The notes: generated by a model not told the origin, from the letters alone. Counted from the first letter of the stretch, positions 3,017-64,000 are shown. The stretch: 64,000 nucleotides of DNA from Theionarchaea archaeon (GCA_018992685.1 JACVGT010000021.1:81748-145747); one strand, 5' to 3'. Made by a program: numbers and translations.

Positions 3017-3065
3017 CGGAGGAAGGCTTAAATAGGTTTATCATGAAGGTGACAACGGTGATACA

Positions 3066-4355: not shown

Positions 4356-4365
4356 GTTCACTCTA

Positions 4366-4546: not shown

Positions 4547-4555
4547 TTTATATAA
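4547..4555 (+). promoter_or_regulatory. TATA box of heat-shock operon
   Basis: TTTATATAA lies about 30 nt upstream of the first codons of the regulator gene. A transcript starting about 25 nt downstream would begin near 4577, just after the palindromic operator at 4561-4573 and just before the start codon. Confidence 0.7.
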
Positions 4556-4560
4556 TAGAC

Positions 4561-4573
4561 TAACTTCAAGTTA
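4561..4573. promoter_or_regulatory. Palindromic operator, Phr-like
   Basis: TAACTTCAAGTTA is a perfect 13-bp palindrome (TAACTT-c-AAGTTA) between the TATA box and the start of the ArsR-type regulator. It fits the core TNAC-N5-GTNA that I recall for the Pyrococcus heat-shock repressor Phr. Its position would block RNA polymerase, implying autoregulation of the whole chaperone operon. Confidence 0.6.
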
Positions 4574-4582
4574 AGATAAGTG

Positions 4583-5784: not shown

Positions 5785-5785
5785 C

Positions 5786-6364: not shown

Positions 6365-9411
<3,047 letters not shown>

Positions 9412-47009: not shown

Positions 47010-47017
47010 CTCGATAA

Positions 47018-47038
47018 CCTTATATTACGTCTATAAAA
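47018..47038. promoter_or_regulatory. Overlapping divergent promoters for ABC transporter genes
   Basis: In the 33-42-bp gap between divergent genes, CTTATATTA (plus, about 47018-47026) fits the permease start and CTATAAAAA read on the minus strand (47031-47038) fits the ATPase start. Each box lies nearer the other gene, so the promoters interleave. Confidence 0.5.
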
Positions 47039-47051
47039 AGGTGTGGTGAGC

Positions 47052-48059
47052 ATGTTGAAAATTGTGGCAAAAAACCTGACAGGACAGAAGGTACGCGTTT
47101 TCCTACTTATTTTCACTCTCGGAGTGGGAGTCATGGTTTTTGTGTCACTCTCTGCGCTGCTCCAGGGGTTAGAATTCTCAGTATACCAGACATTTGAAGG
47201 ATTTTCCCAGGAGAGGGATATCTTGCTGGTAAAGGGGACGGTCGAACTGCCTGTACCCTCGCAGGCTCTCTCTGTATGCACTGTGGAAGAAAGGGTTCTT
47301 CCCACCGGAACAGTGCTCATAAAGCATGTTGATCTCGCTCAGTTTGAGAATCTCACTTCTATCTCGATGGTGGAAGGTGACTATCCCGAATCAGGTACTG
47401 AATGTATTACTGAATACTTTTTCTCGCAAAAGGAAGACATCACTCTGGGAGCACTCTTTCTTGACTACAAGGTGGTGGGCATTTTCTTTCACCAGAAAGG
47501 GTTCTACACTCATGTAATTGCCACCACGCCATACACAGGATATACTCTGACTGAAATGAAGGTTGATCCTGACCAGTACAACGAAATTGCCTCTCAGATA
47601 CCTTCGTCCTTCCCGGCCAGGGAGCTTTCCTACTTTTTTTCAGAAGGAACAGTAAGACTTCATGAAACACTGGAGCAAATGCTCGGGATTGTTGTGGCTA
47701 TTCTGGTGCTCAGTGTCTTTATCAGCATGAATGCAGCTGTCCTGGAACGAAAGTGGGAAATTGGAGTGCTCAGAGCCCTGGGAGCCAAAAGATCATTTAT
47801 CTTGCGCCTTTTTCTCTATGAAAGTGTCATTATTTCATTCCTGGCGGCAGGCATAGGAATTGCGCTGGGCATCATTTTCTCCAATTCACTTACTGTATTC
47901 TTCTCAGAAATTCAACAAGTTAAGGGGATTCAGCCTGTGATGACAGCAGCGCTTTTGGTTGAGGCTGTAGCAGGCCCTCTGCTAATCGGAGTTCTGGGAG
48001 GTATTCTCCCCGCATATAGGGCCTCCAGAATGGATATAAGTGAATGCCTGGTGGTGTGA
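47052..48059 (+). CDS. FtsX/MacB-type ABC permease
   Basis: The 335-residue permease has one N-terminal membrane helix, an extracytoplasmic domain (about 45-205) and three C-terminal helices with the FtsX motif SMNAAVLERKWEIGVLRALGAKRSFILRLFLYES and PAYRASRMDISECLVV. It works with an ATPase such as that at 46353. ATG 47052 is chosen; GTG at 47043 is in frame. The stop overlaps the next ATG. Confidence 0.9.
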   Translation: MLKIVAKNLTGQKVRVFLLIFTLGVGVMVFVSLSALLQGLEFSVYQTFEGFSQERDILLVKGTVELPVPSQALSVCTVEERVLPTGTVLIKHVDLAQFENLTSISMVEGDYPESGTECITEYFFSQKEDITLGALFLDYKVVGIFFHQKGFYTHVIATTPYTGYTLTEMKVDPDQYNEIASQIPSSFPARELSYFFSEGTVRLHETLEQMLGIVVAILVLSVFISMNAAVLERKWEIGVLRALGAKRSFILRLFLYESVIISFLAAGIGIALGIIFSNSLTVFFSEIQQVKGIQPVMTAALLVEAVAGPLLIGVLGGILPAYRASRMDISECLVV

Positions 48060-51000
48060 TGATTTCTCTCATTAGAAAGCCAATTCTTAAGAGGAGGAGA
48101 ATCCTGATGACAGGAATCTCCATTGTCTTGTCCACCATGCTCTTCTTCTGTGTAAGTTCCGCTCTGGAATTCGTGGATCAGTCTTCTCAGGAGTATTTGG
48201 GCGACGAACAAACATTTATACTGACAGAGGGTGGATCCACAACACTGAGAGATACTGTGTTGGGCATGGGCTTGGCAGAGGCTTTGCAGGGACTATCAGG
48301 AATATATCTCGTGAGCCCTGAGAATTTCTACTATGAAACGCTGGAAGGAGAGCCAGTCATCATCAGGGGAGTGACTCCCACCTTTTTTGAACTGGAACAG
48401 ATTTCCATACAGGGGCGGATTCTCGACGCCTCTGATTTACACAGTGCTGTCATTGGAAGTGAAATCTCTCAGCGGTTTCGCCTATCTGTGGGAGATTCCT
48501 TTATCATTCCCGATCCTATTCATTCGTCGTACATTGAATATACAGTAGTGGGTATTCTCAAAAGCTCTGGCTTCTTGGATAGTGAAATACTTATTCCCCT
48601 TGAGAGCGGCTGGGTCCTTGCTCACCATCCTCGCACCGGTACAGTCAGTGTCATCAGGGTGAAGGTCGACCCTTCAGTCTGGCCTACCTATGAAGAGTTG
48701 TATCGGGTGCTCAAGGAGCCTCCTGAACTCTCAAACCTCCACTCTTACCCTCTTCCTGGCGAGCCACGGATCACTCTCTCAGGAACAGTCTATGATAACA
48801 TGAAGGTGGATGCGGTTCAGGCGTATTACCTGGTGGACACCACGTGGAAGACCAGTTCGGCTCGCGTTGAGGATACTACCTTCGAGGCAGAGATACCTGC
48901 GCGCAGCGAGCAGTACTATGTCACTGCCCGTGATGTCGTCGGAAATGTCACCTCAACCACGGTACAAAGAACAATCCCTCTACAATCAGGCGCTGTTCAG
49001 TACTCACTTACCCCAGAGAATCCAACTGCAGATGATACTCTCACTATTCACTGCTTTTCAGATGCAGATGATGTCAGCCTATACTATACTACAGCGGGGC
49101 CATGGTCCCGACTGGAAATGAGGAAACAGGACGGAAAATTCATTGGCGAGGTGGGGACTCTCAAGGGAGAACTTTTGTTCTACTTTGTCGTTGACACGGG
49201 GGGTATTGAGTATGAAAGCCCCATTTACAAATGCACTGTGGAGAAGGAAAGAGACAAAGGTATCATACAGAGAATCCTCGAAGGGAATAAAATTACGCAG
49301 ACCCAAATCATGTTCCCAGAAGGCATAACTGGTGATTTTGATCTTCATTCGTCACAGGAGTTTTCGGAGGACATAAAGAAGGTTGGTCTGGGGAACCTGT
49401 ACGCTCTGACCATGGTAATCCTGGTGGTCACTGTTCTAGCAACAGTCATGGCCATTTTCTCTTCCATGACTGCAGCCGTTTTTGAATCCAGAAGGGAGAT
49501 TGGGATTCTGCTCTCCCTGGGCGGAAGGCGTTCTGTACTCTACAGTGTATTTCTCATCCATTCCGTGGCCATTTCACTGGCTGCAGGAATCCTGGGAAGC
49601 GTCGGAGGGTATGGGCTGCTTCACCTGATCCATCGCTACGGAACGCTAGTTGCAGGTACAATCTTGATAGAGCCACTTCTGGATGGTCGCATCTTTCTGA
49701 CCAGTCTCCTGTTTGCTGTAGGGATGGGTTGCGTGGCTACCTTCTTCTCGGTGAGGATACTCTCCTCACTGAATCCCTCTGAAGCGCTCAAACGGGTGTA
49801 TCTTGTGAAGGAATCTGGAAGAAAAATCCCCTCTTTCACTTTTCTCCCGGGGGATAGAACCAAGAGCATACTGGTGGTGATCCTCCTGCTAGTATTCTCT
49901 TCAGCACTCCACCTGTATCCCACACTCCGTACTGGACTTCCCTTTGATCCAGATGCATGGTCTCACTATTCCCTCTCCACCGGGATGATCACAACACATC
50001 ACTCTCTGGAAGAACATCCCTTTTTCTATCTCAACTATAATACTCACTGGCAGGCTGTAACGTTCATCCTGTCAGAGTGCAGTCTTGTTTCGGGGATTGA
50101 CCCACTGGATATTACTCGGATTCTCATCCCCCTCATTTCTTCTATATCACTCATTCTCATCTATGCATTGACAGTCCTGGTGTCCAAGTCACGAGTTTCG
50201 GGGGCTGTTTCAGCTGCCGTGTTCTGTGTAGGGGGAATATATATCAACCGATCTTCAGCCGTGACCAAAGAAAGCCTGGCTTTCACTCTCCTTCTCCTCA
50301 CCATCTACCTATACGGAGCAGGAAGATTGAAGAAAAGTCCTGCATTCTATGTTCTTTCCTTTATCAGCTATCCGTGTCTGTTGGTGACACACCACATAAC
50401 TACACTTCTGTTCATCTTGATCCTTCTTTCTATTTCTGTCCCTTTGATGTTATATGAATTGTACAGAGGAACGAATCGAAGGTGGACAGGAATTCTTGAT
50501 ATAACCTTTGTAGTTTACTGCATTACTCTCTTTTACTGGTTCAACAGGGATATGAGTGACTTCCTGCGATTTGGGTTTAGTGATATCTCTCTCCTGCTAT
50601 CCTACCTCCTCGTGGTAGGCAGTACTTTTACATATCTAGCTCTCAGACAGAGTCTCAAAAAGACGATCCTCATGAGTATGTGCGGTTCAGCATGTCTCAT
50701 ACTGCTCCCGTATTTTATCATAGAGTTCAATGTATATTCTGCTGCCCCATCAGAATTTCTCAAGGAGGTTCCTCCCTATGCAATCTGGATGGTCCTGGGC
50801 AGTATTGGCGTTTTCCCCTTACTGACACGGTCTGCAGAGAGAAGACTTCTCTTTTCCGGATGGATTGCTGCTGTCAGTTCCTTTCTTTTGTTTGCATTGA
50901 CCAGGGAACGGTCTGCATTCAGTTTTCTCCTCCTCTTCAGGACGATTTCCTACGGGTACCAGGTCCTGGCCATCATGGCAGGAATGGGAATCGTATTTCT

Positions 51001-51427
51001 CATACAGAAAGGCTCTTCACGGACCCGCAGCGGAATACTTCTCTTTGGAATTGCGGTAGTAATACTTTCCTTTTATTCTGTCCAGTCCGGGTATCTTGGA
51101 AGCTACTATGAGCAGAAGGATCTGTACTGGATGCCCGAATACACAGCAGGAACCTGGGCGGGAGAGTACCTTACAGGTCCAGCGCTAACTGACGAACGTT
51201 TCGGCAAGCTTCTGCAGGGCGTGGCACAAGTCGATTATGACCTGATTGGATTCAGCCAGCTCATGATCAAGGGAGAAGGTCCAGAGGGCGTGATAATCCT
51301 GTATAATGACATGTATATCCATGGATTCGTGGTAGATGTGAATTTCATCCACCCTCAGAAAACGATGGATTCCTTTGACTGCGTGTATGCTAATCCAGTG
51401 GTAACTGTACACAGAAAAGAAGAGTGA
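48059..51427 (+). CDS. FtsX-type permease fused to a GT-C-like polytopic domain
   Basis: The 1122-residue protein has, in order: an N-terminal membrane helix; an extracytoplasmic MacB-like domain (about 40-230); two Ig-like beta segments (about 235-400, e.g. VTARDVVGNVTSTTVQRTIPL); three FtsX helices with FESRREIGILLSLGGRRSVLYSVFL (about 450-595); then an additional domain of about ten membrane segments (615-1000) and a C-terminal soluble tail. The second half has FDPDAWSHY, GIDPLDITRILIPL and VTHHITTLLFIL, resembling the protein at 41993. The fusion suggests export coupled to glycan handling. ATG 48059 overlaps the previous stop. Confidence 0.85.
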   Translation: MISLIRKPILKRRRILMTGISIVLSTMLFFCVSSALEFVDQSSQEYLGDEQTFILTEGGSTTLRDTVLGMGLAEALQGLSGIYLVSPENFYYETLEGEPVIIRGVTPTFFELEQISIQGRILDASDLHSAVIGSEISQRFRLSVGDSFIIPDPIHSSYIEYTVVGILKSSGFLDSEILIPLESGWVLAHHPRTGTVSVIRVKVDPSVWPTYEELYRVLKEPPELSNLHSYPLPGEPRITLSGTVYDNMKVDAVQAYYLVDTTWKTSSARVEDTTFEAEIPARSEQYYVTARDVVGNVTSTTVQRTIPLQSGAVQYSLTPENPTADDTLTIHCFSDADDVSLYYTTAGPWSRLEMRKQDGKFIGEVGTLKGELLFYFVVDTGGIEYESPIYKCTVEKERDKGIIQRILEGNKITQTQIMFPEGITGDFDLHSSQEFSEDIKKVGLGNLYALTMVILVVTVLATVMAIFSSMTAAVFESRREIGILLSLGGRRSVLYSVFLIHSVAISLAAGILGSVGGYGLLHLIHRYGTLVAGTILIEPLLDGRIFLTSLLFAVGMGCVATFFSVRILSSLNPSEALKRVYLVKESGRKIPSFTFLPGDRTKSILVVILLLVFSSALHLYPTLRTGLPFDPDAWSHYSLSTGMITTHHSLEEHPFFYLNYNTHWQAVTFILSECSLVSGIDPLDITRILIPLISSISLILIYALTVLVSKSRVSGAVSAAVFCVGGIYINRSSAVTKESLAFTLLLLTIYLYGAGRLKKSPAFYVLSFISYPCLLVTHHITTLLFILILLSISVPLMLYELYRGTNRRWTGILDITFVVYCITLFYWFNRDMSDFLRFGFSDISLLLSYLLVVGSTFTYLALRQSLKKTILMSMCGSACLILLPYFIIEFNVYSAAPSEFLKEVPPYAIWMVLGSIGVFPLLTRSAERRLLFSGWIAAVSSFLLFALTRERSAFSFLLLFRTISYGYQVLAIMAGMGIVFLIQKGSSRTRSGILLFGIAVVILSFYSVQSGYLGSYYEQKDLYWMPEYTAGTWAGEYLTGPALTDERFGKLLQGVAQVDYDLIGFSQLMIKGEGPEGVIILYNDMYIHGFVVDVNFIHPQKTMDSFDCVYANPVVTVHRKEE

Positions 51428-51455
51428 TCCCCACTCCCGCTCGGCTGTTCTCTCT

Positions 51456-51815
51456 CTAAGGCCCTCCTCTGTCTTTCTTCTTGATAATACTTCTTCGTAT
51501 AGCACCACAGAGAAAACACAGTATACTGAAAAGGGACAGAGAGTACACAACAGGGATGAGAGAAATCTCCCACAGTACATCCAGGATAACGCCTCCCAAG
51601 ACAGTGACACAGATACTCAACCCAAAACTCAGGGCCAGTGCTTCTATTGGGTCCAGTTCTTTGTGTGGAAACAGTGCGTAAACCAGGGAACCGCCAGGAA
51701 GAAAAAGGACGAATATGAACCCTGCAACTGCTCTCCCATAGACAGGAGCAAGAATCCACACAGTGCACAAGGCAACAATCACACAGATAATCAGTGCGTC
51801 CCTTGGTTTCACCAT
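51456..51815 (-). CDS. DUF1616-like small membrane protein
   Basis: The 119-residue protein has about three membrane segments and the DUF1616-type signature AGFIFVLFLPGGSLVYALFPHKELDPIEALALSFGLSICVTVLGG. DUF1616 proteins are usually longer (about 300 residues), so this is a short version ending in a basic cytoplasmic tail. ATG 51815 is chosen because CTTAAAAGT at 51836-51844 lies 25 nt upstream. It may be cotranscribed with the STT3-like gene upstream, but it has its own box. Confidence 0.7.
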   Translation of the reverse strand: MVKPRDALIICVIVALCTVWILAPVYGRAVAGFIFVLFLPGGSLVYALFPHKELDPIEALALSFGLSICVTVLGGVILDVLWEISLIPVVYSLSLFSILCFLCGAIRRSIIKKKDRGGP

Positions 51816-51876
51816 GGTCCTACTCCTGGTCATTACTTTTAAGGTTGTGTGCGGATACAGTTTTTCCGGAATGAGG

Positions 51877-53931
51877 CTACCTGAGGAAGACTGCCCGGGT
51901 CACGGGGGCATGCTCCCCTTCTCTCAACACGATGTAGAACCGCACTACGGGAGGCATGTCAAGAGACACGTGCTGCACTCCAGAGCCGGGCATCGCTCTG
52001 ATGGTGACATCGTAGACACGAATGTCCTCTGATTCCATTGTTCTCATAGCAAAAGAGCAGTTCAAGGTGATGGGTTCAGGTGAGGGATTGTATGTATACA
52101 CCATGACATCCAGAAGGGAGCCGGAACACGTGTATGTAAAGTTGGTCACCAGAGCTCTTTCGTACGTGACCTTGAATAGTTTTAGATCTTCATATTCAAA
52201 GACAAGCTCCATTCCATCGATATCTTCGAAATACAGGGTGCACAGGGCAGAATCCTGATAGGGAACAGGATCTTTGGCAAACAACACCATGGCATAGAAG
52301 CGCTGTACCGTTTGTGCATCCAGTGCTACATACTGTATTCTGTGGTATCTCAGATAGCCCATTCCTTTTTCAGGAGACGCACAGAAGAAATCTGCTGCCT
52401 TTTCAGGTTTCTGGGCCATGATAGTATCTGTTACAGTGCACCGCTCAGCCAGTGCCTGAAACCAATTGCTCTGATCCCATTCTGTGAGGATGCTTGCATC
52501 TGGTGAGCTGTTGTACAAGAGCCAGGAGCTGGCTTCCTCCCAAGAAGGAGTGATATAGGGCTCAGTACTGCTGTAGGTGTAAAAAGAACTGTACAAAGGC
52601 ACCAGCACGTACAAGAATATGACTGAGTATTTCGCTATCATGTTGAACGTGGGGGATCGAAGAGCGTGCTCTGTAGAACGAAAGAAGTAGTAGAAGGCGA
52701 TGGCAGAAAAAGCACATATGCCGGGAGCAGCAGCGAAGAGAAATCGATTGAGTGTTACACTCAAGTACAGCGACAGTACAGTCCATGCACCCACCATGCA
52801 CAGAGATACAGAATCTGGAGACCTGGGCTCCAGCCCCTTTCTCTTGATCAAGGAGACCACAAGGAGAAGTGCTCCAAACACGACCATAAGAATCAGTGAA
52901 TTGTACGCAGACAGGAACACCGAAGGCGTCACTGGCTGAAGTTCCACGATCTGCTGGGAAACCATGGTCTTAGGCAGAAAGAAGGCGCTGCGGGAAATCA
53001 AGAATCCCTTTATGAATGAGAGGCGTTCCCAGAATCCAATCAAAAAGAGGAAGGGAAAAAGTAGTAACAGAGCGCCCGGGATGCGCCCTTTGCGTATCAG
53101 GAGATACCGTGTGAAATCCGTATATACCAGTACTGAGCCTCCTCCCAGCACAGAGAGGCTCATCTTGACCACGAAATCAGCCATTAAATTATCATATACT
53201 TTATTTGAATAGTAGAAGAGCAGGATAGAGGGTATGGAAACGCATAAAAATATAAATGAATGTTTGAAATTAACTTTTTTTCGAAACAGATCTGTCACGC
53301 TCATAAAAAAAGAGAATGACAGCAGAACCAACACAATAAGAATCCATCCATTGAAAATAAGCATGGCGGTGGCAAGAAGTCCGATTTCCAGGACAATCCA
53401 CAGCAATGTGGCAGATCCTGAGCTCTTATATATTTTCAGGTAGACATAGATGGCCAGGATGAGAATGACCACCATGAAAACGTCACCTCTGTACACCCCG
53501 GATGTGCTTCGAATAGAAGCTGCAGAGACGATTGCCAGGAAGAAGGCGGATAGAAATCCGATCTTTCTGTTACAGGCGTCTGCCATTAATATATAGATGA
53601 AGACAACTGCGGTGGTTCCGAAGATAATGGGCCACAGCTGGAAAAAGTGTATGAGATGGGATTCGTTTTCAGACATGACGGTGTATGGGATGAGAAGAAT
53701 ATAGTAAAATCCAGGAGGAGTCCAGTTCTTTCCCGTTCCCGGGAAGTTTGAAAGGTTGTTCCAGGGGGCATAGTGGTGTGTATGAGTAAAATCCGTCTTT
53801 GTCACGGCGTAATGGAGCCAGGGGTCAGCCCATGGCAGGGTTTGGTGTTCCAGGCTCATGACTCTCACAGAAAGAGCGAGCAAAACAAGAAGCATGATAA
53901 GAACTAAAAGTGGAGTTGTCTTTTCTTTCAT
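51877..53931 (-). CDS. Divergent STT3/AglB-like oligosaccharyltransferase
   Basis: The 684-residue protein has about 12-13 membrane helices then a C-terminal globular domain (about 455-684). STT3-like landmarks: first-loop DPWLHY, second acidic motif RSTSGVYRGD, and the loop-5 Glu in IVELQPVTP. The WWDYG region aligns to ILTEWDQSNWF, so only W-D is retained. STT3/AglB moves a lipid-linked glycan onto Asn of sequons outside the cell. The motif change makes substrate preference or activity uncertain. It follows the 53949 gene by 17 bp. Confidence 0.8.
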   Translation of the reverse strand: MKEKTTPLLVLIMLLVLLALSVRVMSLEHQTLPWADPWLHYAVTKTDFTHTHHYAPWNNLSNFPGTGKNWTPPGFYYILLIPYTVMSENESHLIHFFQLWPIIFGTTAVVFIYILMADACNRKIGFLSAFFLAIVSAASIRSTSGVYRGDVFMVVILILAIYVYLKIYKSSGSATLLWIVLEIGLLATAMLIFNGWILIVLVLLSFSFFMSVTDLFRKKVNFKHSFIFLCVSIPSILLFYYSNKVYDNLMADFVVKMSLSVLGGGSVLVYTDFTRYLLIRKGRIPGALLLLFPFLFLIGFWERLSFIKGFLISRSAFFLPKTMVSQQIVELQPVTPSVFLSAYNSLILMVVFGALLLVVSLIKRKGLEPRSPDSVSLCMVGAWTVLSLYLSVTLNRFLFAAAPGICAFSAIAFYYFFRSTEHALRSPTFNMIAKYSVIFLYVLVPLYSSFYTYSSTEPYITPSWEEASSWLLYNSSPDASILTEWDQSNWFQALAERCTVTDTIMAQKPEKAADFFCASPEKGMGYLRYHRIQYVALDAQTVQRFYAMVLFAKDPVPYQDSALCTLYFEDIDGMELVFEYEDLKLFKVTYERALVTNFTYTCSGSLLDVMVYTYNPSPEPITLNCSFAMRTMESEDIRVYDVTIRAMPGSGVQHVSLDMPPVVRFYIVLREGEHAPVTRAVFLR

Positions 53932-53948
53932 GAAGACCCTGATTTACT

Positions 53949-54389
53949 TCATTTGGCTTGAAATCTCCAGTAGCCGTCTTCCGGCATTCTCCACATTAGA
54001 CCGTCTACTGTGTGAACAAACAGGTAATAATCATATGGTCCTCTGTCCAGACAGATAGATCCGTCAAACCGTCCTGTCTTCCCGTTGTACATTAATTCAA
54101 CCTGGGTTCCTGGCCTGATGATACAGATAACCCGGGAAATGTCATAGTTTCCTTCATTAACGTGTGCAGATATACTGACCCAACAGCCGTCCTGACGGAT
54201 ACTAATGAAGTCCCTTGTTGAATGAGGTATGACTGGAGGAGAAGAACCACCACCTCGATTCCCACCGAACCTGTTTCCGAAGTTACCCTGTCCGTACATC
54301 AGTAATGGCAACCCTACCGTAGCAAATAACAGAATCGCAATCATGGAAACCAGAATCCAGCTTTTGGTAAGAACACCTTTTTCAGCCAT
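53949..54389 (-). CDS. Single-pass extracytoplasmic protein of unknown function
   Basis: The 146-residue protein has one membrane helix (about 10-33: ILVSMIAILLFATVGLPLLMYG), a Gly/Asn/Arg linker and a beta-rich outer domain with four Cys (DGCWVSI, VICII, GSICLDRG). I recognise no family. It is first of a minus-strand unit with the STT3-like gene 17 bp downstream, suggesting a partner or substrate role in glycosylation. A TTTATATGC box lies about 35 nt upstream. Confidence 0.7.
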   Translation of the reverse strand: MAEKGVLTKSWILVSMIAILLFATVGLPLLMYGQGNFGNRFGGNRGGGSSPPVIPHSTRDFISIRQDGCWVSISAHVNEGNYDISRVICIIRPGTQVELMYNGKTGRFDGSICLDRGPYDYYLFVHTVDGLMWRMPEDGYWRFQAK

Positions 54390-54588
54390 GTATCTCGCCT
54401 GCCATTATTTTATATTTAATGCATATAAACCTTTGGGCATTCTGTCCTCAGTCACACAAAATTCGCGATTTTGACGAAAATTCAAGGCGTCTGATCCATC
54501 TCCCTCCGCGTAGCTCAACGAGAGCAAGAGCAATCAGTGGATATAAATAGTACCCTTACGTCAGTACAAGAAGAACAGGAGGATCGCC

Positions 54589-55203
54589 ATGAGCAAAGAA
54601 TATTTCGAAACGGTAGCTCAAGAATGGGATACTCTGAGAGAAGGATTCTTCTCTCAGGCAGTGAGGGAGAAGGCATTTGCCAAGGCAGGGATTTGTCCTG
54701 GCACAGTAGCCGTCGACGTGGGCTCTGGAACAGGGTTTATAACAGAAGGACTTGTTTCAGAGGGAGTATATGTCATTGCAGTGGACGAATCTGAATCAAT
54801 GATCCGGGAATTGAAAAAGAAAATCCAGAGTTCCGAATTTGGGTGCTGTATTGCGGAGGTGGAAGCATTGCCCATCACCAGTGGCAGCACGTTCTATGTT
54901 TTCTCCAATATGGTATTGCACCATGTAGAGAACCCACCGTCAGCCATCAAAGAAATGGCCCGAATTCTTCGTCCAGGAGGAATCCTGGTAATAACAGACT
55001 TGGATGAGCACCAATTCGAGTTCTTGAGAGAAGAGCATTCTGATCGTTGGATGGGATTCAAGAGGGAACATGTCAAAGCGTGGTTTGAGCAGGCAGGACT
55101 TACGAATGTTGATGTAGACTGTGTGGGAGAAGACTGTTGTTCCACGTCACGCTCACATGAACAGGCGCAAATCAGCATTTTTGTGGCTTCGGGCAGCAGA
55201 TAA
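54589..55203 (+). CDS. Class I SAM-dependent methyltransferase
   Basis: The 204-residue protein has SAM motif I VAVDVGSGTGFITEGLV, motif IAVDESESMIREL and LRPGGILVITDLDEH, like UbiE/ArsM-type small methyltransferases. The N-terminus SKEYFETVAQEWDTLREGFFS and a Cys pair near the C-terminus (GEDCCSTSRSHE) are notable. It has a strong ribosome site (AGGAGG) and an ATATAAAT box near 54540. Substrate unknown. Confidence 0.88.
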   Translation: MSKEYFETVAQEWDTLREGFFSQAVREKAFAKAGICPGTVAVDVGSGTGFITEGLVSEGVYVIAVDESESMIRELKKKIQSSEFGCCIAEVEALPITSGSTFYVFSNMVLHHVENPPSAIKEMARILRPGGILVITDLDEHQFEFLREEHSDRWMGFKREHVKAWFEQAGLTNVDVDCVGEDCCSTSRSHEQAQISIFVASGSR

Positions 55204-55407
55204 CTGGATTTCCCCATAGTTACAGTGATTTTGTACGGGGTTAAAAGCTCGAACGTATCGCAAAAGAGAAGAAAGATGCGAGAACACGTTTCCTACAATC
55301 TCAGCTTCTTCTGATTCTACTGACGGGCGGGCTTGCACAAGGAAGACCAGTAAAGTGAAATTATCAAAAACATACTGGTATATCTGATTTGACATGCCAT
55401 TGAGCAT
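55153..55407 (-). CDS. Possible small CDS or gene remnant
   Basis: The 84-residue minus-strand frame (MLNGMSNQIYQYVFDNFTLLVFLVQARPSVESEEAEIVGNVFSHLSS and more) reads like protein rather than random sequence and stays open upstream of the ATG for about 25 codons (VRSVYARLFIFNRTTKHEIRC). It overlaps the 3' end of the methyltransferase by 51 bp and has no clear promoter or start motif. It might be a remnant. I do not recognise it. Confidence 0.25.
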   Translation of the reverse strand: MLNGMSNQIYQYVFDNFTLLVFLVQARPSVESEEAEIVGNVFSHLSSLLRYVRAFNPVQNHCNYGEIQLSAARSHKNADLRLFM

Positions 55408-55721
55408 GGGAGGCCCACAACGTATCTCATGCTTTGTTGTCCGGTTGAAAATAAACAGTCTAGCGTATACCGAACGTACTCATTGAAAGGACAAGTCATA
55501 AAGCCAAGAACTGCCAGATTTTACATTTGAAATCAATCTAATGGTCTCATTAATCTCCGATCTATCCTTCGATAATATTTTAAAACATAAATTCATCTAT
55601 TAATGTTCAGGTTTCTACCAATGATTATTTTATATGCGCTAATAGAAAAGTTTATAAAGCACTGATTCCCCAAGAAGAATCGGCGCGGACAACAAGTGAG
55701 TCAAGTATATTTGAAGGAGGT
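55204..55721. other. A/T-rich intergenic region before RHS gene
   Basis: The 518-bp gap is rich in A and T towards its right end. It holds the RHS promoter (GTTTATAAAG near 55650-55659), with a ribosome site GAAGGAGGT before ATG 55722. Apart from the weak minus-strand frame above I see no gene. Confidence 0.5.
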
Positions 55722-58700
55722 ATGGACATGAAAGTAATAAAGGTAAGTTGGATAACAATTGCTTTGATTCTTGGGCTACTCTCTATCTCTCAGAACGTCT
55801 TTTCCACACTGGAGAGTTCCCAAGATATAGTTCTCAATCAGCCTTTTGACATGGTAAGACATTTTGCGTTGGAGGATCCACTCTATAGGACTGAAGAGGC
55901 CTACGGTTCCACAGAACAACCATCTCATCCACCTCTGGAGATTCATGCCAGTGATATACCACAATTTGAGTACATGGCAGCCTCTCCCTACTACAAGGTG
56001 TTCTTCAAAGGGACAGCAATGAGAATGGAGATTGGGGAAGCCTGGATTGAGTTTGAAATGGTTGGAAACGATCTAGAACAGGTGCAAAAAGGACGAATTT
56101 CAGTTGATAGTGATATACTTTCTGTTTCTAACGTTCTTGATGCAACAGATGTAGAATACCAGGTAGGAACATCTTTGCTGACAGAAAATCTGGTCCTCCA
56201 CATCCCACGGGAATACCAACGATTTGTATACACGATATCCTGGGGTGACCTGACACCCGAATACGTAGAAGACGGACTACTATTCTCTTCAAATGGTAAC
56301 CCTGTTGTGAAGATTCTTCCTCCTTTCATGAAGGATGCAGTAGGCTCAATATCTACTGATATTCATTACGAACTGATCGAGACAGAGGCAGGTCAAGAAC
56401 TACACAAGGTTATCAACGAATCAGGACGGGAATGGCTTAGAAACGCTGTGTACCCTGTGATTATTGATCCCTCCATGCAGACCTTTGAGGATGCCTGGCA
56501 ATCTTCAGGATTAACACCATTTGGACAATATTTTAAGAATTTAAAAGAATACGTCAACCCTGCAAATGGGTTCCTAACCATTACCCAGAATGATCTCGTA
56601 ATCCCTGGGCGCGGGCTCGATCTTCTCATTACTAGAGTGTATCAAACGCCTGCTATCTTCTATGGTACAGATCCCTATGATTACGAAGCTCCGCCTGTAG
56701 ACATCGGAAAAGGATGGGCACTTGATTTCCCTTATGTTGGCAGCAAATACCTGCACCTATGGGGAGGAACAGTGTATAAAATCTCCTGGGTAAATAATAC
56801 CTTTGAAAACCACATAGGTACCCACTTTGTGTTGGTGAAAAACGGCGATAGTACTTATACCCTAACTACAGCCAGCGGAACCGTGTACGAGTTCAATACA
56901 TCAGGCAACATAACTCAGATCAAGGATGTTGATGTCAACACCATTTCCTTTACCTATGAGAGCGGAGTCCTGACCACCATCACTGACACAATTGGACGCA
57001 CGGTGAGCCTGACCTATTCGGACGGGCTCCTGTGGAAGGTTTCCTACAATGGTGCAGAACTGGAGTATTCTTATGACGATAATGACTGTCTGCAGTGGAC
57101 AGAAGATTTCCTGAATAGAAGAACTAGCTACTACTATAATACCGGGTACAACTACTGGTTACTATCAAAGATAGAGTATGTAACAGGGGGCTACACAACA
57201 TATTCCTATTCCCGATTCACTGATGAAGACTACTACAAGTACTACGTCACTGACCAGAGGGCATACACAGCAAGTCAGATTCGCCACTCTGCTTTTGCCT
57301 ATACCGGCACGTTTGACTCCATCACGTCTTCATCCACTACTGTCAAGAATGAATCAGATGTCGCTCAAGGCTCATATCATTTCACCATAGATTCCAACGG
57401 GCTGATAACCCAGAGAGTCGTCAAGAATGCAGCAGAAACGACAATTCGAAAATCTGTCTATAGCTACAACTCTTTGAAGGAGGCGATCCAAGAACAGGTC
57501 TACCATGATGGGTCCACCCTATCATATACTGTTTACTACGCATATGATAATTGGGGTAATCTCATCTATGTTAAGGATGCAGAGGGCCATGAACAGTTCT
57601 TATCGTATGCAAATACCTCTACCTCGGGGTTCTTCATAGATAATAATGGTAATATCATCAAGACCTTTACTGGCGCTTTCTCCAATTCCAGTGTTCCTTC
57701 AGCAGTCCACACCGCTGTACTAGGCGTAGCAGAAAAACAGGATGCGACACACGTTAAGGAGATGTATGTCACCTATGATTCTGAAGCTCATCCCACACAG
57801 GATAAGAAACTGTTTGGTGGTACCACCACGTGGCTAACCTTTTCAGGGACGTTCAATGAAAAGACAGATGATACGAGCTTTTCCGTTGACCTGACTGGAC
57901 ACCAGGTCATAGGAAACGGGGTTCTGCAGATTACAGGGGCTGGATCTGATGATACGTATAGCGAAAGTCACGGATTCGGCTGTCCATGCACGTACGACAG
58001 CTGCTACTCGGAAACAGGTGGCTGGTCAAGCAACTATTACTACCTCTACTATCGATATTGCATTGGAGGAGGAGTGTACTGTTATTATGCAGATACATAT
58101 ATTGGTCCTTTTACCCACTACCCCGGTACTCTTGGTTACCAGAGTTATTCTGTTAATCCTTCTCTTGGTTCAGCTTTCACGGATACGAACCCCTTCACTG
58201 TCTGGACGTACTGGAAGGCGTACCCAGTGCAAGTCCAGTATGACATCAATGGATCTGATTGGAAGACTATCACGTCGAACCTGAAGAACACAACTGCAAA
58301 TATTACAGTCCCTGGATTGAATAGTGGTCAGAATACATTGTACTTCACCGAATCCTCATCATATCAGACCAAGTTTACCTGGAGTCTGTATGTGCCAGTG
58401 GACAATTCACCACAGAGCTATCAAACGAGTATGCAATACGATACCTATGGTAATGTCACTTCTGTTACTGATCCTGAATCCAATTCTGTTAGTTTCACCT
58501 ACTCTGCAACATACAGTTCCGCCTATCTAACCGAAATTTCAGCCACTGTTGGCCAAGATACAATTGCTACCAAAGCCACATACGATTACAATAGGGGATG
58601 GATTACTTCCATACAGGAACCCAAGGGTGTAGCAGCAAGCTCTGGGTACACCACGTCTTATTCCTATGATCTCTTGGGGAGAACTACTACCAAGACGTTC

Positions 58701-61700
58701 CCATTGCTCACAGGACAATCTGAACCATCAACCGTTCGAGCAATCTATGACGATACCAACAGGCTGGTCTATATTGTGGACCAGCTCAACCATTATGTCA
58801 GATATGACTATGACAACCTGGGGAGAACGACTGCCAAGAAGTGGTATACAGGTACCTACAGCACGGGAACGTTGTATGCGACAGAGTCATTTTCCTATCG
58901 CTATGATGATCTAGTCTCAAATGTCACTGATCCGGGCAGTCATCAAACAGCATATACATACGATTTTCTAGGAAGAGTCACTCAGGTTTCATATCCAGAC
59001 TCATCTTCAGTTTCTTATTCTTACCTTGACACAAATAACAAAGTAATGTTCACGAATGGACGTGGATATGACAAAATTAACTGGTATGATTGGCTGAATC
59101 GATTGGAAAAAGTCGAGGAAGAGTATGCTACAGATTCTTTTGCAGTGAGCACCTATCAATATGATGATGTGGGGAATTTGACCTCTTTAGTTGATGCAGA
59201 GAATCACACCACGAGTTATACGTATGGTTCATTTTTTGGGTTAACGAAGGTTACCTATCCGGATTCCACCTATGAGCAGTATGAGTATGACAACGTGGGC
59301 AATCTTTCCAATTATATTGACGCCGAAGGTAACACCATCATGTATTCTTACGATGATATATATCGTCTAACTCAAATGGAATATGAATCTGCAGATAGCT
59401 TCAAATACTATAAGCAGATCTCAATAAGCAATTTCTCTTCAAATTATCAATACAAGATAACAGTTCATAAAGGTGGTGGGACAGATGACGCAACCAATGT
59501 ATACCTGAATAATCACTGTCAGGATGACTTTGATGACATCCGGTTTAGAGCATCAGATAAGACCACGGAGCTAGATCACTACAGAGAATCCTATACTTCA
59601 GGATCTTCAGCCGTTTTCTGGGTGGAGCTACCATCATCAAGCCAGACCATTTACATTCTCTATGGGAATGATTCTGCTTCCTCAGCAAGTAATGGTGAAA
59701 ACACCTTCATATTCTTTGATGGTTGTGAAAGCGGGAGCATCGGTGACGAATGGAGCGAAGATAATTCTGCGGGAACATCAACGTACTCAACAGAAGAGAG
59801 TAAATTCGGCTCAAGAAGCCTGAAACTGACCCAAACATCGACCACAGAAGATTACATCATTCATCCTTCCGCCACATTTAACGTTCCCAATTTCATTCTG
59901 GAATTATGGGTAAAGCAAGGTGATTCAGGCAACAGGAATAGCATTCAAACAAGAAAAAGTGGCGATTATCTCATTTTCTCTGCGGTTTTTGCAGCTTCTG
60001 ATCTGAAGTATTGGTCCACTGAGATGTATGATACAGGCTATGACTTTACCACAAATTGGGAATTCCATCAGTTTACTGGGACTGAGTCGGATGACGTCGT
60101 CAAATGGAAACTGGGTGACACACAGATAGCCTCTGACATTCACTTTGATCCGTGGGCCAATCTGTATACTATTTGGTTGAAAGGAGGAAAAGACGGTCCG
60201 AATGACTACGTATATTTTGACAATATCAAGGTCAGGAAGTATGAAGCAACACCCCCCACATTTGGGTTTGGCAGTGAGACAGAGACCGAGCTCCCCACTG
60301 TATCATTCACCTACGATTTGAATTCAAACAGGACACGAATGAATGACGATGCACCAAATGCCGATGACTATATTGAATACTCCTATGACTACTGGAATAG
60401 GCTGACCTCGCAGACAAGACACATCTCTACCAGCAGCTACGGAGTCTCGTACCAGTATGATGTGTCCAGCAGAATGACAAAGTTGACCTACCCCACCAAT
60501 ATGCAGATTCTTCATTCGTATGATGATCTGAATCGAATGACAGAAACCAAGCGATATGTAGACGGCGTTGATGATGAAATCCTCATGGACAATGTGCAGT
60601 ACACGGTGGAAAGTCTCTTGACACAGGCTGATTATGGCAATGATCTCCAAGCTACATTCTCCTATGATTCACTGGACAGGGTCTCCACCCTTGATGTCAA
60701 GAATGGAACAACTGCCTTTTTGGATCTCGACTACACCTATGATAATAACGGTAATATTACCCAGCTAGTAAATGGCTGGAGAGACACCAGTTCCTCATGG
60801 CATTCTGAAACTGAGTCCTATGGATATGATGGCATGGACAGATTGACATCCGCCAGCTGCACCTCATGGTCTCACACATATTCCTACGACAAGGCAGGGA
60901 ATAGAACAGCTAAAGATGGTGTGACATACACCATCAATACGGTCAATGAAGTGACTGCCTTGAGTGATGGGACTACCTTTTCATATGATAATAACGGGAG
61001 CAGAACGGGGAAGAGCAAGGGAACAGATGCGTGGGTCTATACGTACGAGTTCGTCAGTAGACTAGCCAAAGTGGAGAAGAATTCTGTCACATTGGGAGAA
61101 TACGTGTATGATGGTGACGGGAAGAGAATTCAGGTAACTGAAGACGAGGTCACCACTGTCTATGTATATTCGGGTTCGAATGTAGTGTACGAAGAGAATT
61201 CCACTGGTATAGCGTGTTACATTTTCGGTTCAACAGGAAGACTGGCCAAGAGAACCACTATTAGCGGAGAATCCAACATGTTCTACTACTCTTCAGACCA
61301 TTTGGGGTCCACTCGACTGGTGACAGATGGAAGCAAGAATATCGTGGCAGCTGTAGCGTATCATCCTTTTGGTGAGACTAGCACAGAGGAAGGCTCTGAA
61401 TCGTACTTATACAATGGAAAAGAAAAAGATGCAACAGGACTATACTACTACGGGGCGCGGTATTATGATCCGGAAGCGGGAAGATTTATAACTAGAGACG
61501 CAAGAAAAGGAGATATCCATGCTCCTTCTACACTGAACAGGTTCGCCTATTGCAGAAACAACCCCGTGAGATTTATTGATCCATGGGGAGAACGAGATGC
61601 TCTCCATGACATTGGGGACCCAGGGAAGACAGATGAGCCAGAAGTTGTAGAGGATCCACTGGCCAATTTTGATCCAAATGCAGACTTCTGGGATCCAGAT

Positions 61701-62243
61701 GTTATGCAGGAAGTGGCGAAAGCAGTGTCTGAACTGAACATTGGAGTTAGAGGGGAAGCATCTGCTGGGGCATGGGACATTCCCGGTCCAGACTATATTG
61801 GAAGTAGAGCTGGAAGTAGTTCTGGAGGAGGATGGAAGTTTCCAGATTTCTCGATAGGATTTGAAATCAGCGCGGGATTTGCGGAGCTACTTGGAATTGG
61901 TGGTGGGCTAGGATTTGTTATTGACACGAATGGCAATTTCGAATCGTACACAATAGAGCAGATTGGGCTGGTAGGATTCAACGCAGGAAGCGTAGACATT
62001 ACTGCATTTGGTTCCACCCTTTCAGCCGAAGAAGTGGCGAATTCCACTTCCAGTACGGTGGAGATAAGTTTCATAGCAGGTAATGGTCAATGCTCCGGTC
62101 CAGAATATCAAGGATTTCCCTCTGGGCGTTTCAATAAAATCAATTTTGGATTATCTTACTCTCCTGCCCCTTTTCCTCTTAATATGGGAAGTGCTGTTTT
62201 GTGGTATGTGGAGACTCAGTCTTTTGATTGGCCCTTTTGGTGA
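55722..62243 (+). CDS. Large secreted RHS/YD-repeat protein
   Basis: The 2173-residue protein has an N-terminal signal-like helix (VSWITIALILGLLSISQNVFS), an N-terminal beta domain, a DUF6531-like start (EYVNPANGFLTITQNDLVIPGRGLDLLITRVYQ near 280), and many YD repeats (e.g. YDYDNLGRTTAKK, YEYDNVGNLSNYIDAEGN). A DUF2341/LamG-like insert sits at about 1229-1519 (ISNFSSNYQYKITVHKG, FWVELPSSSQTIYILYGND). The conserved RHS core YNGKEKDATGLYYYGARYYDPEAG near 1895 precedes a unique glycine- and beta-rich C-terminal region (about 1950-2173), which could be a toxin-type tip. Confidence 0.93.
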   Translation: MDMKVIKVSWITIALILGLLSISQNVFSTLESSQDIVLNQPFDMVRHFALEDPLYRTEEAYGSTEQPSHPPLEIHASDIPQFEYMAASPYYKVFFKGTAMRMEIGEAWIEFEMVGNDLEQVQKGRISVDSDILSVSNVLDATDVEYQVGTSLLTENLVLHIPREYQRFVYTISWGDLTPEYVEDGLLFSSNGNPVVKILPPFMKDAVGSISTDIHYELIETEAGQELHKVINESGREWLRNAVYPVIIDPSMQTFEDAWQSSGLTPFGQYFKNLKEYVNPANGFLTITQNDLVIPGRGLDLLITRVYQTPAIFYGTDPYDYEAPPVDIGKGWALDFPYVGSKYLHLWGGTVYKISWVNNTFENHIGTHFVLVKNGDSTYTLTTASGTVYEFNTSGNITQIKDVDVNTISFTYESGVLTTITDTIGRTVSLTYSDGLLWKVSYNGAELEYSYDDNDCLQWTEDFLNRRTSYYYNTGYNYWLLSKIEYVTGGYTTYSYSRFTDEDYYKYYVTDQRAYTASQIRHSAFAYTGTFDSITSSSTTVKNESDVAQGSYHFTIDSNGLITQRVVKNAAETTIRKSVYSYNSLKEAIQEQVYHDGSTLSYTVYYAYDNWGNLIYVKDAEGHEQFLSYANTSTSGFFIDNNGNIIKTFTGAFSNSSVPSAVHTAVLGVAEKQDATHVKEMYVTYDSEAHPTQDKKLFGGTTTWLTFSGTFNEKTDDTSFSVDLTGHQVIGNGVLQITGAGSDDTYSESHGFGCPCTYDSCYSETGGWSSNYYYLYYRYCIGGGVYCYYADTYIGPFTHYPGTLGYQSYSVNPSLGSAFTDTNPFTVWTYWKAYPVQVQYDINGSDWKTITSNLKNTTANITVPGLNSGQNTLYFTESSSYQTKFTWSLYVPVDNSPQSYQTSMQYDTYGNVTSVTDPESNSVSFTYSATYSSAYLTEISATVGQDTIATKATYDYNRGWITSIQEPKGVAASSGYTTSYSYDLLGRTTTKTFPLLTGQSEPSTVRAIYDDTNRLVYIVDQLNHYVRYDYDNLGRTTAKKWYTGTYSTGTLYATESFSYRYDDLVSNVTDPGSHQTAYTYDFLGRVTQVSYPDSSSVSYSYLDTNNKVMFTNGRGYDKINWYDWLNRLEKVEEEYATDSFAVSTYQYDDVGNLTSLVDAENHTTSYTYGSFFGLTKVTYPDSTYEQYEYDNVGNLSNYIDAEGNTIMYSYDDIYRLTQMEYESADSFKYYKQISISNFSSNYQYKITVHKGGGTDDATNVYLNNHCQDDFDDIRFRASDKTTELDHYRESYTSGSSAVFWVELPSSSQTIYILYGNDSASSASNGENTFIFFDGCESGSIGDEWSEDNSAGTSTYSTEESKFGSRSLKLTQTSTTEDYIIHPSATFNVPNFILELWVKQGDSGNRNSIQTRKSGDYLIFSAVFAASDLKYWSTEMYDTGYDFTTNWEFHQFTGTESDDVVKWKLGDTQIASDIHFDPWANLYTIWLKGGKDGPNDYVYFDNIKVRKYEATPPTFGFGSETETELPTVSFTYDLNSNRTRMNDDAPNADDYIEYSYDYWNRLTSQTRHISTSSYGVSYQYDVSSRMTKLTYPTNMQILHSYDDLNRMTETKRYVDGVDDEILMDNVQYTVESLLTQADYGNDLQATFSYDSLDRVSTLDVKNGTTAFLDLDYTYDNNGNITQLVNGWRDTSSSWHSETESYGYDGMDRLTSASCTSWSHTYSYDKAGNRTAKDGVTYTINTVNEVTALSDGTTFSYDNNGSRTGKSKGTDAWVYTYEFVSRLAKVEKNSVTLGEYVYDGDGKRIQVTEDEVTTVYVYSGSNVVYEENSTGIACYIFGSTGRLAKRTTISGESNMFYYSSDHLGSTRLVTDGSKNIVAAVAYHPFGETSTEEGSESYLYNGKEKDATGLYYYGARYYDPEAGRFITRDARKGDIHAPSTLNRFAYCRNNPVRFIDPWGERDALHDIGDPGKTDEPEVVEDPLANFDPNADFWDPDVMQEVAKAVSELNIGVRGEASAGAWDIPGPDYIGSRAGSSSGGGWKFPDFSIGFEISAGFAELLGIGGGLGFVIDTNGNFESYTIEQIGLVGFNAGSVDITAFGSTLSAEEVANSTSSTVEISFIAGNGQCSGPEYQGFPSGRFNKINFGLSYSPAPFPLNMGSAVLWYVETQSFDWPFW

Positions 62244-62541
62244 ATTCTGAAATGAATTATATCGGAAATATTCGGAACAGATAGAATAAAGAGAAAATAA
62301 CTTACAATGGGATATTGGGAAACTACAATGGTATGAGCAAGTGCCTTACGAAGTACTGGGCACAGAATTTGGCAGATATGTCTATTCTTAACGCCGTTCG
62401 TGACAAAACGTGGTTCATAACCTTATCTAGCAACTGAAAGTATTCGAGACAGAAATTAATATTGAATGTAGTTGAAGTTTTGAAAGACATAGATTTTGCG
62501 TCTAAAGGATAGCTTTAAAAGTATAGATGACTATGTGAATC
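62244..62541. other. Intergenic region after RHS gene
   Basis: A 298-bp A/T-rich stretch with no supportable gene. At its right end CTTTAAAAG (about 62513-62521) is a TATA-like box 25 nt before ATG 62542. Confidence 0.5.
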
Positions 62542-63006
62542 ATGAATGATACCAGACAAAAGAGACCCACAGGGTTAAGTATTGTTTCAGTCTTATGGAT
62601 TCTGTGGGGGGTATTGAATCTCTTTCTTGTTTCACTCTATGTAAATGCTGATCTTTCAGTCATGTCTTCGGCTTCATATCAGACGATGCATGAATGGCTG
62701 CGATTTGCGTTACCTGCTGAACTGGCATTGAATTTGACAGCTTTTGCTGCTAGCCTGGTAATGGTATTTGCAGGCTACGGATTATTGACAGGGAAGTCCT
62801 GGTCATACAAATTGACTCTTGCAATCGTTCTAGTACCCATCATACTAAATTCCTTGGTGATCATGCTTTATTTATCTGCCCCTACAGAACTGAATTTTAG
62901 TGGGTCAGCTCCAGTAATGCGTCTTCCCTTTGGTCTTATATGGGTAGCACTGTTGTGGATATATCTGAGAAGAGATAATGTGAAGATGTTTCTGGGAGTC
63001 AGATAA
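62542..63006 (+). CDS. Small four-helix membrane protein
   Basis: The 154-residue protein has about four membrane segments (about 10-33, 55-83, 91-110, 122-143) and basic ends. I recognise no specific family. The start is supported by the TATA-like box upstream. Its position just after the RHS gene makes it an immunity or accessory candidate, which is inference only. Confidence 0.7.
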   Translation: MNDTRQKRPTGLSIVSVLWILWGVLNLFLVSLYVNADLSVMSSASYQTMHEWLRFALPAELALNLTAFAASLVMVFAGYGLLTGKSWSYKLTLAIVLVPIILNSLVIMLYLSAPTELNFSGSAPVMRLPFGLIWVALLWIYLRRDNVKMFLGVR

Positions 63007-63262
63007 ATTCTCAAGATCGACGGGAGGAACAATGCTGAATACGACAGAAGAGATGGAAAGGAGGATGTTTCCTAATGAGGAATGAAGGTGGTTCTGTAAG
63101 AAGATCCTGAACTCCACACTGATCTCCCTCGCAATATTTGTGATACCCCTTTGTTTTCTTTGGCTTCTCCTGGTAGCTCGGTAAAGATAACTTTATTAAC
63201 ATGTGAAGAAGAAATGAATCGAAAAAGAATGGAGGACAGCTGATGTTCTGGGAGTGAACCGA
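63007..63262. other. Intergenic region before broken membrane gene
   Basis: A 256-bp gap. ACTTTATTAA near 63189 is TATA-like but lies about 70 nt before the ATG at 63263. No gene supported. Confidence 0.4.
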
Positions 63263-63939
63263 ATGAAGAGAAGACTATTCACAATAAGATATTGGCAAAT
63301 CTACAAAGGTATAGGTATATGCCTCATAGTATCCTTATTCTGTTCAGTCATCGCTATCCTCTTCTTGAGGCTCGACAGAATTCCCACGATAGTTATATCA
63401 TTATTACCCCTCATTGGGTGGCAGCTTTACTGTCAGGGATCAGCAGCAGAAGCCTTTTCCAGATTACTCTGTCTCTTTGAAGGTGACATTGAATTTAAAA
63501 GTCAATTCTTTACCATTTTGTCTTTAGCCCATATTCTTTATGGATTTGTTACAAAAACCTCATTCCACGAGGGGAGATTCCCCCTGAACACTATCAGGTT
63601 TGGAAAGAGACTTCATGGCCCTCAAGAATAAGGGTATCTCCTTACAGTCTCAGAGAATATATCTTGCCCGATTGGATATGGCGGTGGTTATTCCCAGGAT
63701 TGAGAATCTCGAAGAAAGCAGCTGATACCGTGAGTGATGAACTCAAGCCTTATTTCTCGAGAGAAAAGATTGATATTCCATCGGTTCGACACATTGGTCT
63801 TGCAAGAAGAGCCAATAAGAATATCTTGATAGCGTTGCTCACCACTGATGCCTCGCTTGAGGAATTTCAGCTAGTCTTCTCTATTCTTGACGAAATTGAG
63901 GATAGTATCCGAAGAAGTGATGAAACTGAGATGTGGTGA
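63263..63939 (+). pseudogene. Putative membrane protein gene, apparently frameshifted
   Basis: A first frame (63263-63631) encodes two membrane helices and SFHEGRFPLNTIRFGKR before a stop. A second frame, open from 63499, reads convincingly from about 63571 as GEIPPEHYQVWKETSWPSRI, then LREYILPDWIWRWLFPG, ISKKAADTVSDELKPYFSREKIDIPS and on to 63939. A -1 shift at the run GAGGGGAGATTCCCCC (63569-63584) would join them into one protein of about 225 residues. This could be a real disruption, an assembly error, or frameshifting. No family recognised. GTG 63254 is an alternative start. The last 61 bp of the window (63940-64000) show nothing. Confidence 0.5.
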
Positions 63940-64000
63940 ATACATTCAGATTGATTTCCCCCCGGTCAGGCATGAACGGTCTCGGTATTCGTCACTGGAC

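What the first reader, a model, noticed from the sequence alone, without database searches (positions are those of the whole stretch)
55722..62243. Archaeal RHS protein with DUF2341-like insert and unique C-terminal tip
A secreted RHS/YD protein of over 2100 residues with the full core motif before a non-repetitive tip resembles bacterial polymorphic toxins, in an archaeon. The DUF2341/LamG-like insert inside the YD shell is unusual and suggests carbohydrate or surface binding.
Basis: partly seen in the sequence, partly recalled or inferred. Interest (0 to 1): 0.65.

Follow-up and report, generated by a model that had tools for sequence, protein, structure and literature searches.

The report
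Archaeal Rhs toxin-like gene, swappable tip
An uncultured archaeon carries a family of very large secreted proteins built like bacterial contact weapons, each with a different end piece; the end piece of this one travels with its own downstream membrane-protein gene, and a sister species has lost the weapon but kept that likely antidote.

Summary
The ORF is real: 2173 aa, window 55722-62243, with a signal-like N-terminus, RHS/YD shell, RHS-associated core ending at residue 1956, and a 217-aa tip. The host is an archaeon. Its genome holds five more near-full-length RHS paralogues and several fragments. Shells are 35-80% identical, but identity falls to background right after the core: tips are interchangeable. 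The DUF2341/LamG-like stretch is an insert of about 300 aa that the paralogues lack. This tip occurs in only one other of 396 archaeal genomes, in another family of the order, where a two-TM membrane protein follows it 10-13 bp downstream. A relative of that protein lies downstream of this RHS gene (63254-63939, frame broken by a 31-nt gap), with two more copies on the overlapping next contig, one of them intact. The sister species has a clean 8.5-kb deletion of the RHS gene, leaving a methyltransferase stub and an intact orthologue of the membrane protein: the orphan-immunity pattern. Best reading: a Sec-exported archaeal Rhs polymorphic toxin whose tip probably acts at the target membrane, with an immunity array. 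Toxicity, immunity, autocleavage and carbohydrate binding are untested; AlphaFold failed on the tip. The kind is known; the tip and immunity families appear new.

The parts
55722..62243 (+). RHS/YD protein gene, 2173 aa
   Evidence: ORF; Pfam/NCBIfam; five near-full-length paralogues in the same genome
55722..55805 (+). signal-peptide-like N-terminus (hydrophobic residues 5-23)
   Evidence: hydropathy scan; sequence; no signal-peptide predictor run
56394..57161 (+). conserved N-terminal plug/DUF6531-like region (residues ~225-480)
   Evidence: invariant columns in paralogues; DUF6531 weak, below cut-off; found in only 2 of 396 archaeal genomes
59391..60296 (+). DUF2341 + jelly-roll-like insert (residues 1224-1525) within the YD shell
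   Evidence: absent from 5 paralogues; DUF2341 at residues 1269-1340; only DUF2341 in this genome; homologues in 47/396 archaeal genomes
60297..61358 (+). second part of the YD shell (residues 1526-1879)
   Evidence: phmmer to solved Rhs shells, 8h8a 2.7e-29 over residues 1546-1956
61359..61589 (+). RHS-associated core (residues 1880-1956, ends ...FIDPWG)
   Evidence: TIGR03696 6.3e-22; end coincides with the end of many matches to solved Rhs/TcC shells
61590..62240 (+). variable C-terminal tip, 217 aa, candidate toxin domain
   Evidence: no Pfam/PDB match; unrelated to other tips; homologue only in G008
62542..63006 (+). 154-aa protein with four TM-like segments, role unclear
   Evidence: no similarity to the candidate immunity family; lies in the segment missing from the sister
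63254..63939 (+). candidate immunity gene, two-TM family, copy 1; frame broken by a 31-nt gap relative to the intact sister orthologue
   Evidence: tandem paralogues continue on contig C32, which overlaps this contig end by 144 bp
54589..55203 (+). class I SAM methyltransferase gene, upstream neighbour; only its 5' stub remains in the sister
   Evidence: Pfam
54666..63172 (.). 8.5-kb segment absent from the sister genome, with CTTCTC microhomology at the junction
   Evidence: blastn collinearity and junction alignment

Best explanation
It is an archaeal member of the Rhs polymorphic-toxin kind. SHOWN by sequence: a conserved shell and core, an exchangeable C-terminal tip, a downstream membrane-protein gene linked to this particular tip, tandem copies of that gene, and a sister species that lost the toxin gene but kept the membrane-protein gene. 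INFERRED: the protein is exported through Sec and displayed on the cell surface. The YD shell encloses the tip, as in solved Rhs and Tc structures. The DUF2341/jelly-roll insert projects from the shell as an adhesion module. On contact the tip is released at the DPWG end of the core, where the Asp is conserved. It then acts on a competing archaeon, most likely at the cytoplasmic membrane, because it is Gly-rich and acidic (1 His, 1 Cys, 8 Lys+Arg in 217 aa) and its linked partner is an integral membrane protein. Kin are protected by the two-TM immunity protein, present as an array. The confidence given is for the toxin-immunity reading as a whole; the membrane as the site of action is less than even on its own.
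For: Shell identity to the two closest paralogues is 61-80%, falling to 9-18% after residue 1970. Paralogue tips include three related HExxH domains, hydrophobic tips and a coiled coil. The tip homologue in G008 (pairwise E 1e-5; SW score 73 against a maximum of 42 for 498 control ORFs) is followed 10-13 bp later by a 229-aa two-TM protein. That protein matches the window gene 63254-63939 collinearly in both frame pieces (E 6e-4 and 1e-4) and the sister orthologue (E 7.6e-5; SW 117 against control maximum 59). C32 overlaps the window's contig end by 144 bp exactly and carries two more family members, one intact. The sister deletion leaves an intact orthologue; dN/dS about 0.26-0.30 indicates purifying selection. 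Orphan cassettes: C15 core+tip and C35 signal peptide fused to a tip. Core related to solved Rhs and TcC proteins. Orphan tips and immunity genes are described in bacterial rhs loci (PMC3967940).
Against: No toxicity or immunity data. The immunity copy nearest the RHS gene is frame-broken, so protection would rest on downstream copies. The tip homologue in G008 sits at a contig edge, so its RHS context is unseen, and n=1 for the linkage. The four-TM gene at 62542 lies between RHS and the immunity family here. The tip has no recognisable catalytic motif, and two AlphaFold runs gave pLDDT about 30. The residue after DPxG is E, not the canonical L. No dedicated secretion apparatus was sought.
Confidence: 0.7

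Rival explanations
1. A surface recognition or adhesion protein family (teneurin-like or VARTIG-like) whose variable C-terminus is a recognition module rather than a toxin; the downstream membrane proteins are receptors or anchors.
For: The DUF2341 insert fits adhesion; the domain is found in 47 of 396 archaeal genomes. Thermococcales have a hypervariable Ig-domain module with a polymorphic-toxin-like layout for which non-toxin roles are proposed (PMC8416519). HExxH tips are followed by membrane-anchored beta-propellers, which could be cell-surface partners. The tip lacks an obvious catalytic motif.
Against: Sibling tips carry HExxH signatures, an enzyme-like feature. Loss of the RHS gene with retention of the partner gene under purifying selection, and tandem partner arrays, fit immunity better than a receptor.
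Confidence: 0.2
2. A sub-rival within the toxin reading: the tip is a soluble enzyme (nuclease, protease or similar) acting in the cytosol, not at the membrane.
For: Most Rhs tips catalogued in Zhang et al. 2012 are enzymes (PMC3482391). The two-TM family has a long part outside the predicted TM segments, which could bind a soluble enzyme.
Against: The tip is acidic and Gly-rich with 1 His and 1 Cys, unlike typical nucleases; no enzyme family matches.
Confidence: 0.3
3. A relic or inactive Rhs gene, kept by chance in a decaying repeat-protein family.
For: Several RHS fragments and remnants exist in the genome; the nearest immunity copy is frame-broken; the sister lost the gene.
Against: A 6.5-kb frame without a stop, conserved shell residues and an intact tip; three complete or partial immunity-family copies.
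Confidence: 0.08

Closest known systems
Bacterial Rhs polymorphic toxins (e.g. Rhs1 of Photorhabdus, Tse5, enterobacterial Rhs)
   Same: YD shell, RHS-associated core ending in a DPxG motif, variable C-terminal tip, downstream partner gene, orphan tip cassettes (PMC8636562, PMC3967940)
   Different: Signal-like N-terminus instead of a PAAR/T6SS module; DUF2341 insert in the shell; E instead of L after DPxG; tip and partner families without Pfam match; toxicity not tested
Archaeal RHS polymorphic toxins of Methanosarcina acetivorans (Zhang et al. 2012, PMC3482391)
   Same: Stalked RHS proteins with toxin and immunity cassettes in an archaeon
   Different: Different lineage (class shared with a family whose genome sizes look like Thermococcaceae, an inference; no mcrA found), many paralogues, tip without match to catalogued families; no direct comparison with the Methanosarcina loci was made
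VARTIG modules of Thermococcales (PMC8416519)
   Same: Large secreted protein with hypervariable C-terminus followed by co-directed membrane-protein genes
   Different: Ig domains, no RHS/YD repeats
Homogeneous poly-immunity loci (PMC3482391)
   Same: Tandem paralogues of one candidate immunity family, same strand
   Different: A beta-propeller gene interrupts the array; the family is new; extended loci described there only from bacteria

Membership tests
Rhs polymorphic toxin system | YD/RHS repeat shell | tested here: met
   PF05593 five stretches, 1.5e-26; phmmer to solved Rhs shells 2.7e-29
Rhs polymorphic toxin system | RHS-associated core immediately before the tip | tested here: met
   TIGR03696 6.3e-22 at residues 1880-1956
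Rhs polymorphic toxin system | conserved body with unrelated C-terminal tips among family members | tested here: met
   identity 61-80% in the shell against 9-18% in the tip for the two closest paralogues; tips unrelated
Rhs polymorphic toxin system | cognate gene next to the tip, moving with it | tested here: met
   tip and two-TM gene linked in G008 and in the window; one independent case only
Rhs polymorphic toxin system | C-terminal aspartyl autocleavage site (two DPxGL-like motifs, catalytic Asp in the second) | tested here: inconclusive
   Asp1953, Pro1954 and Gly1956 invariant in paralogues; the residue after Gly is E; first motif DARKG, spacing 22 instead of 17 (sequence, PMC8636562); cleavage not testable
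Rhs polymorphic toxin system | tip is toxic and partner gives immunity | not testable with these tools
   needs expression experiments
Rhs polymorphic toxin system | dedicated or Sec-based export | tested here: inconclusive
   hydrophobic N-terminus residues 5-23; no secretion-system genes sought
Homogeneous poly-immunity locus | tandem, same-strand paralogues of one immunity family | tested here: met
   window 63254-63939 plus C32 1707-2480 and 2687-3460, joined by a 144-bp contig overlap
Homogeneous poly-immunity locus | small intergenic distances, immunity genes in one uninterrupted run | tested here: not met
   a beta-propeller gene lies between copies 1 and 2, so it is not filed as a classical poly-immunity locus
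VARTIG | Ig domains in the large protein | tested here: not met
   no Ig-domain match in Pfam

The most novel reading that the evidence does not exclude
The tip is the founder of a new class of archaeal membrane-acting (possibly beta-pore) toxin with its own two-TM immunity family, one of a genome-wide arsenal used in archaeon-against-archaeon competition, in which tip types are matched to different surface partners (two-TM proteins for this tip, membrane-anchored beta-propellers for the HExxH tips).
Probability: 0.3. Interest if true: 0.75.

Novelty: new member of a known kind. Interest (0 to 1): 0.52.

Why it matters
In 2021 archaeal polymorphic toxins were described as predicted but not experimentally characterised (PMC8416519). 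This locus gives a sharply testable case: a tip linked to one membrane-protein family across archaeal families, a natural toxin deletion in a sister species that kept the likely antidote, and several different tip types in one genome. It would make contact-dependent competition between archaea directly testable and adds two sequence families that Pfam does not recognise.

Tried and rejected
Structure prediction of the tip alone and with its one homologue failed (pLDDT 33.5 and 29.4), so no fold search was run. Tip against Pfam, PDB, plasmids and viral contigs: nothing credible; a weak PDB hit to a CdiA fragment (E 0.13) was not pursued as it is within chance. The weak tip match in G086 (E 0.004) was not accepted: a stop codon lies inside it and no RHS gene is seen around it. 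A possible relation of the Gly-rich tips of G001 and G017 to this tip was tested and not supported. The idea that the 154-aa four-TM gene is the cognate immunity was set aside because the G008 partner matches the 63254-63939 gene and not this one. The idea that the RHS segment is a recent insertion in the window lineage was set aside because the sister keeps a truncated 5' stub of the methyltransferase. One genome-contig scan with the N-terminal region gave only four distant relatives.

Full report
OBSERVATION. Window 55722-62243 (+) is a single ATG ORF of 2173 aa. It has a hydrophobic N-terminus at residues 5-23, RHS repeats (PF05593, 1.5e-26), DUF2341 at residues 1269-1340 (7.9e-17), and the RHS-associated core at residues 1880-1956 (TIGR03696, 6.3e-22). 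phmmer against the PDB finds solved bacterial Rhs and Tc shells (8h8a, 2.7e-29, residues 1546-1956); many of these matches end at residue 1956. The tip is thus residues 1957-2173, 217 aa. The host is an archaeon: the window encodes A-type ATP synthase subunits and diphthine synthase. The assembly is 3.03 Mb, 91% complete, with no mcrA found. Its named identity was not established.

PARALOGUES AND TIP POLYMORPHISM. The same genome holds five more near-full-length RHS proteins (contigs C18, C7, C20, C23, C27; C23 with its N-terminal part in a separate frame) and fragments (C22, C19, C15, C17, part of C18). A full alignment shows invariant core residues, including D1953, P1954 and G1956, up to the end of the core, then loss of similarity. 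Per-block identity to the two closest paralogues is 61-80% from residue 225 to 1956, leaving out the insert, and 9-18% from residue 1971. All-against-all comparison of 16 tips shows related groups among the others (C27/C22/C19 with HExxH motifs, C7/C23) but none related to the tip studied here. C15 is an isolated core-plus-tip cassette with its own downstream membrane gene. At C35 a signal-peptide-like start is fused directly to an HExxH tip. These are hallmarks of rhs loci (orphan cassettes: PMC3967940).

THE INSERT. Residues about 1224-1525 are absent from all five paralogues, whose flanking YD repeats align across the gap. It is the only DUF2341 in this genome, whereas related domains occur in 47 of 396 archaeal genomes. 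Only the DUF2341 part is recognised; the following jelly-roll-like part has no Pfam or PDB match. It is an ordinary archaeal domain placed in the shell. Adhesion is an inference; carbohydrate binding is untested.

THE TIP AND ITS PARTNER. Across 396 archaeal genomes the tip profile finds, besides itself, one credible homologue: an 88-aa partial frame at the start of contig G008:C63, in another family of the same order. Pairwise E is 1e-5; the Smith-Waterman score of 73 exceeds all of 1000 shuffles and 498 control ORFs (maximum 42). Its stop is followed 10-13 bp later by a 229-aa protein with two TM-like segments. In the window, the gene at 63254-63939 matches that protein collinearly in two frame pieces, while the four-TM gene at 62542-63006 does not. 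The sister orthologue matches it with E 7.6e-5; the score of 117 compares with a control maximum of 59, and the match persists with the TM part removed. So tip and partner are linked in two families. This rests on one independent case and a contig edge.

THE IMMUNITY ARRAY. The family profile finds in this genome the two pieces in the window and an intact member on contig C32. The start of C32 is identical to the last 144 bases of the window's contig, so C32 very likely continues the locus. The order is RHS, four-TM gene, copy 1 (frame broken), beta-propeller, copy 2 (divergent, E 5e-12 to copy 3), copy 3 (intact). Copy 1 lacks 31 nt present in the sister. Whether that is a true mutation or an assembly fault near a contig end is open. 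The array resembles homogeneous poly-immunity loci (PMC3482391), except that a beta-propeller gene interrupts it.

THE SISTER SPECIES. G001:C100 (L078) is collinear with window 46358-54665 at 77% nucleotide identity and then directly with 63173-63945 at 75%. The 8.5 kb between, holding most of the methyltransferase gene, the RHS gene and the four-TM gene, is missing. The junction lies at a CTTCTC shared by both window ends, and the sister keeps the first codons of the methyltransferase, so a deletion in the sister is the simplest reading. It keeps an intact orthologue of copy 1, with dN/dS 0.26-0.30 between the two, against 0.07-0.13 for neighbouring genes: relaxed but still purifying. Toxin lost, antidote kept, is the expected pattern for immunity. 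The sister also has other RHS loci, one with a visible and different tip.

MECHANISM. Shown: architecture, tip exchange, tip-partner linkage, partner array, and toxin loss with partner retention. Inferred: Sec export, surface display, encapsulation of the tip by the shell (by analogy with PMC8636562), Asp autoproteolysis, and action at the target membrane. The last step rests on the tip's composition (30 Gly, 31 Asp+Glu, 8 Lys+Arg, 1 His, 1 Cys in 217 aa) and on the membrane nature of its partner. I give it less than even odds on its own.

WHAT IS KNOWN. RHS polymorphic toxins with cassettes are described in Methanosarcina acetivorans (PMC3482391). Archaeal polymorphic toxins were described in 2021 as predicted but not experimentally characterised (PMC8416519). 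The 2019 survey by Makarova et al. is cited there but not held in the library, so its content was not checked. The kind is therefore known. The tip and partner families have no Pfam match and the tip has no PDB match; they look new.

LIMITS. Most relatives compared are fragmented, incomplete assemblies. The tip's fold is unknown, since two AlphaFold runs failed. The confidence values given for the best reading and for the soluble-enzyme sub-rival overlap, because both are polymorphic toxins.

Noticed in passing
L025, L026, L028, L094 (contigs C27, C22, C19, C35 of the same genome): All four HExxH-type tips are followed directly by a secreted beta-propeller gene (PQQ-type at C27, PD40-type at the others) with a C-terminal TM, a possible extracellular partner or immunity protein; other PD40 genes exist elsewhere in the genome.
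   Followed up: partly
L057 (JAPCJO010000005.1, Thaumarchaeota MAG), 521-6211 (+) and 7672-8547 (-): A full RHS gene and an opposite-strand truncated RHS core share the first ~14 tip residues and then diverge: a likely tip-swap case in another archaeal group.
   Followed up: partly
window 48044-51427: A MacB/FtsX-type permease followed in the same protein by a large C-terminal multi-TM region without family match.
   Followed up: no
window 51877-53931: A weak STT3-like multi-membrane protein next to the RHS locus, conserved in the sister (83% aa).
   Followed up: no
L021 1-1995: Decayed RHS remnants and two small membrane-protein genes downstream of the C18 RHS gene.
   Followed up: no
L024 12925-13631: Transposase-like helix-turn-helix frame after the C23 RHS gene at a contig end.
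   Followed up: no
L111 9098-9872: Short tandem repeat coding for a repeated DASGLVR-type motif in one frame (TNPEASR in another), on contig C32.
   Followed up: no
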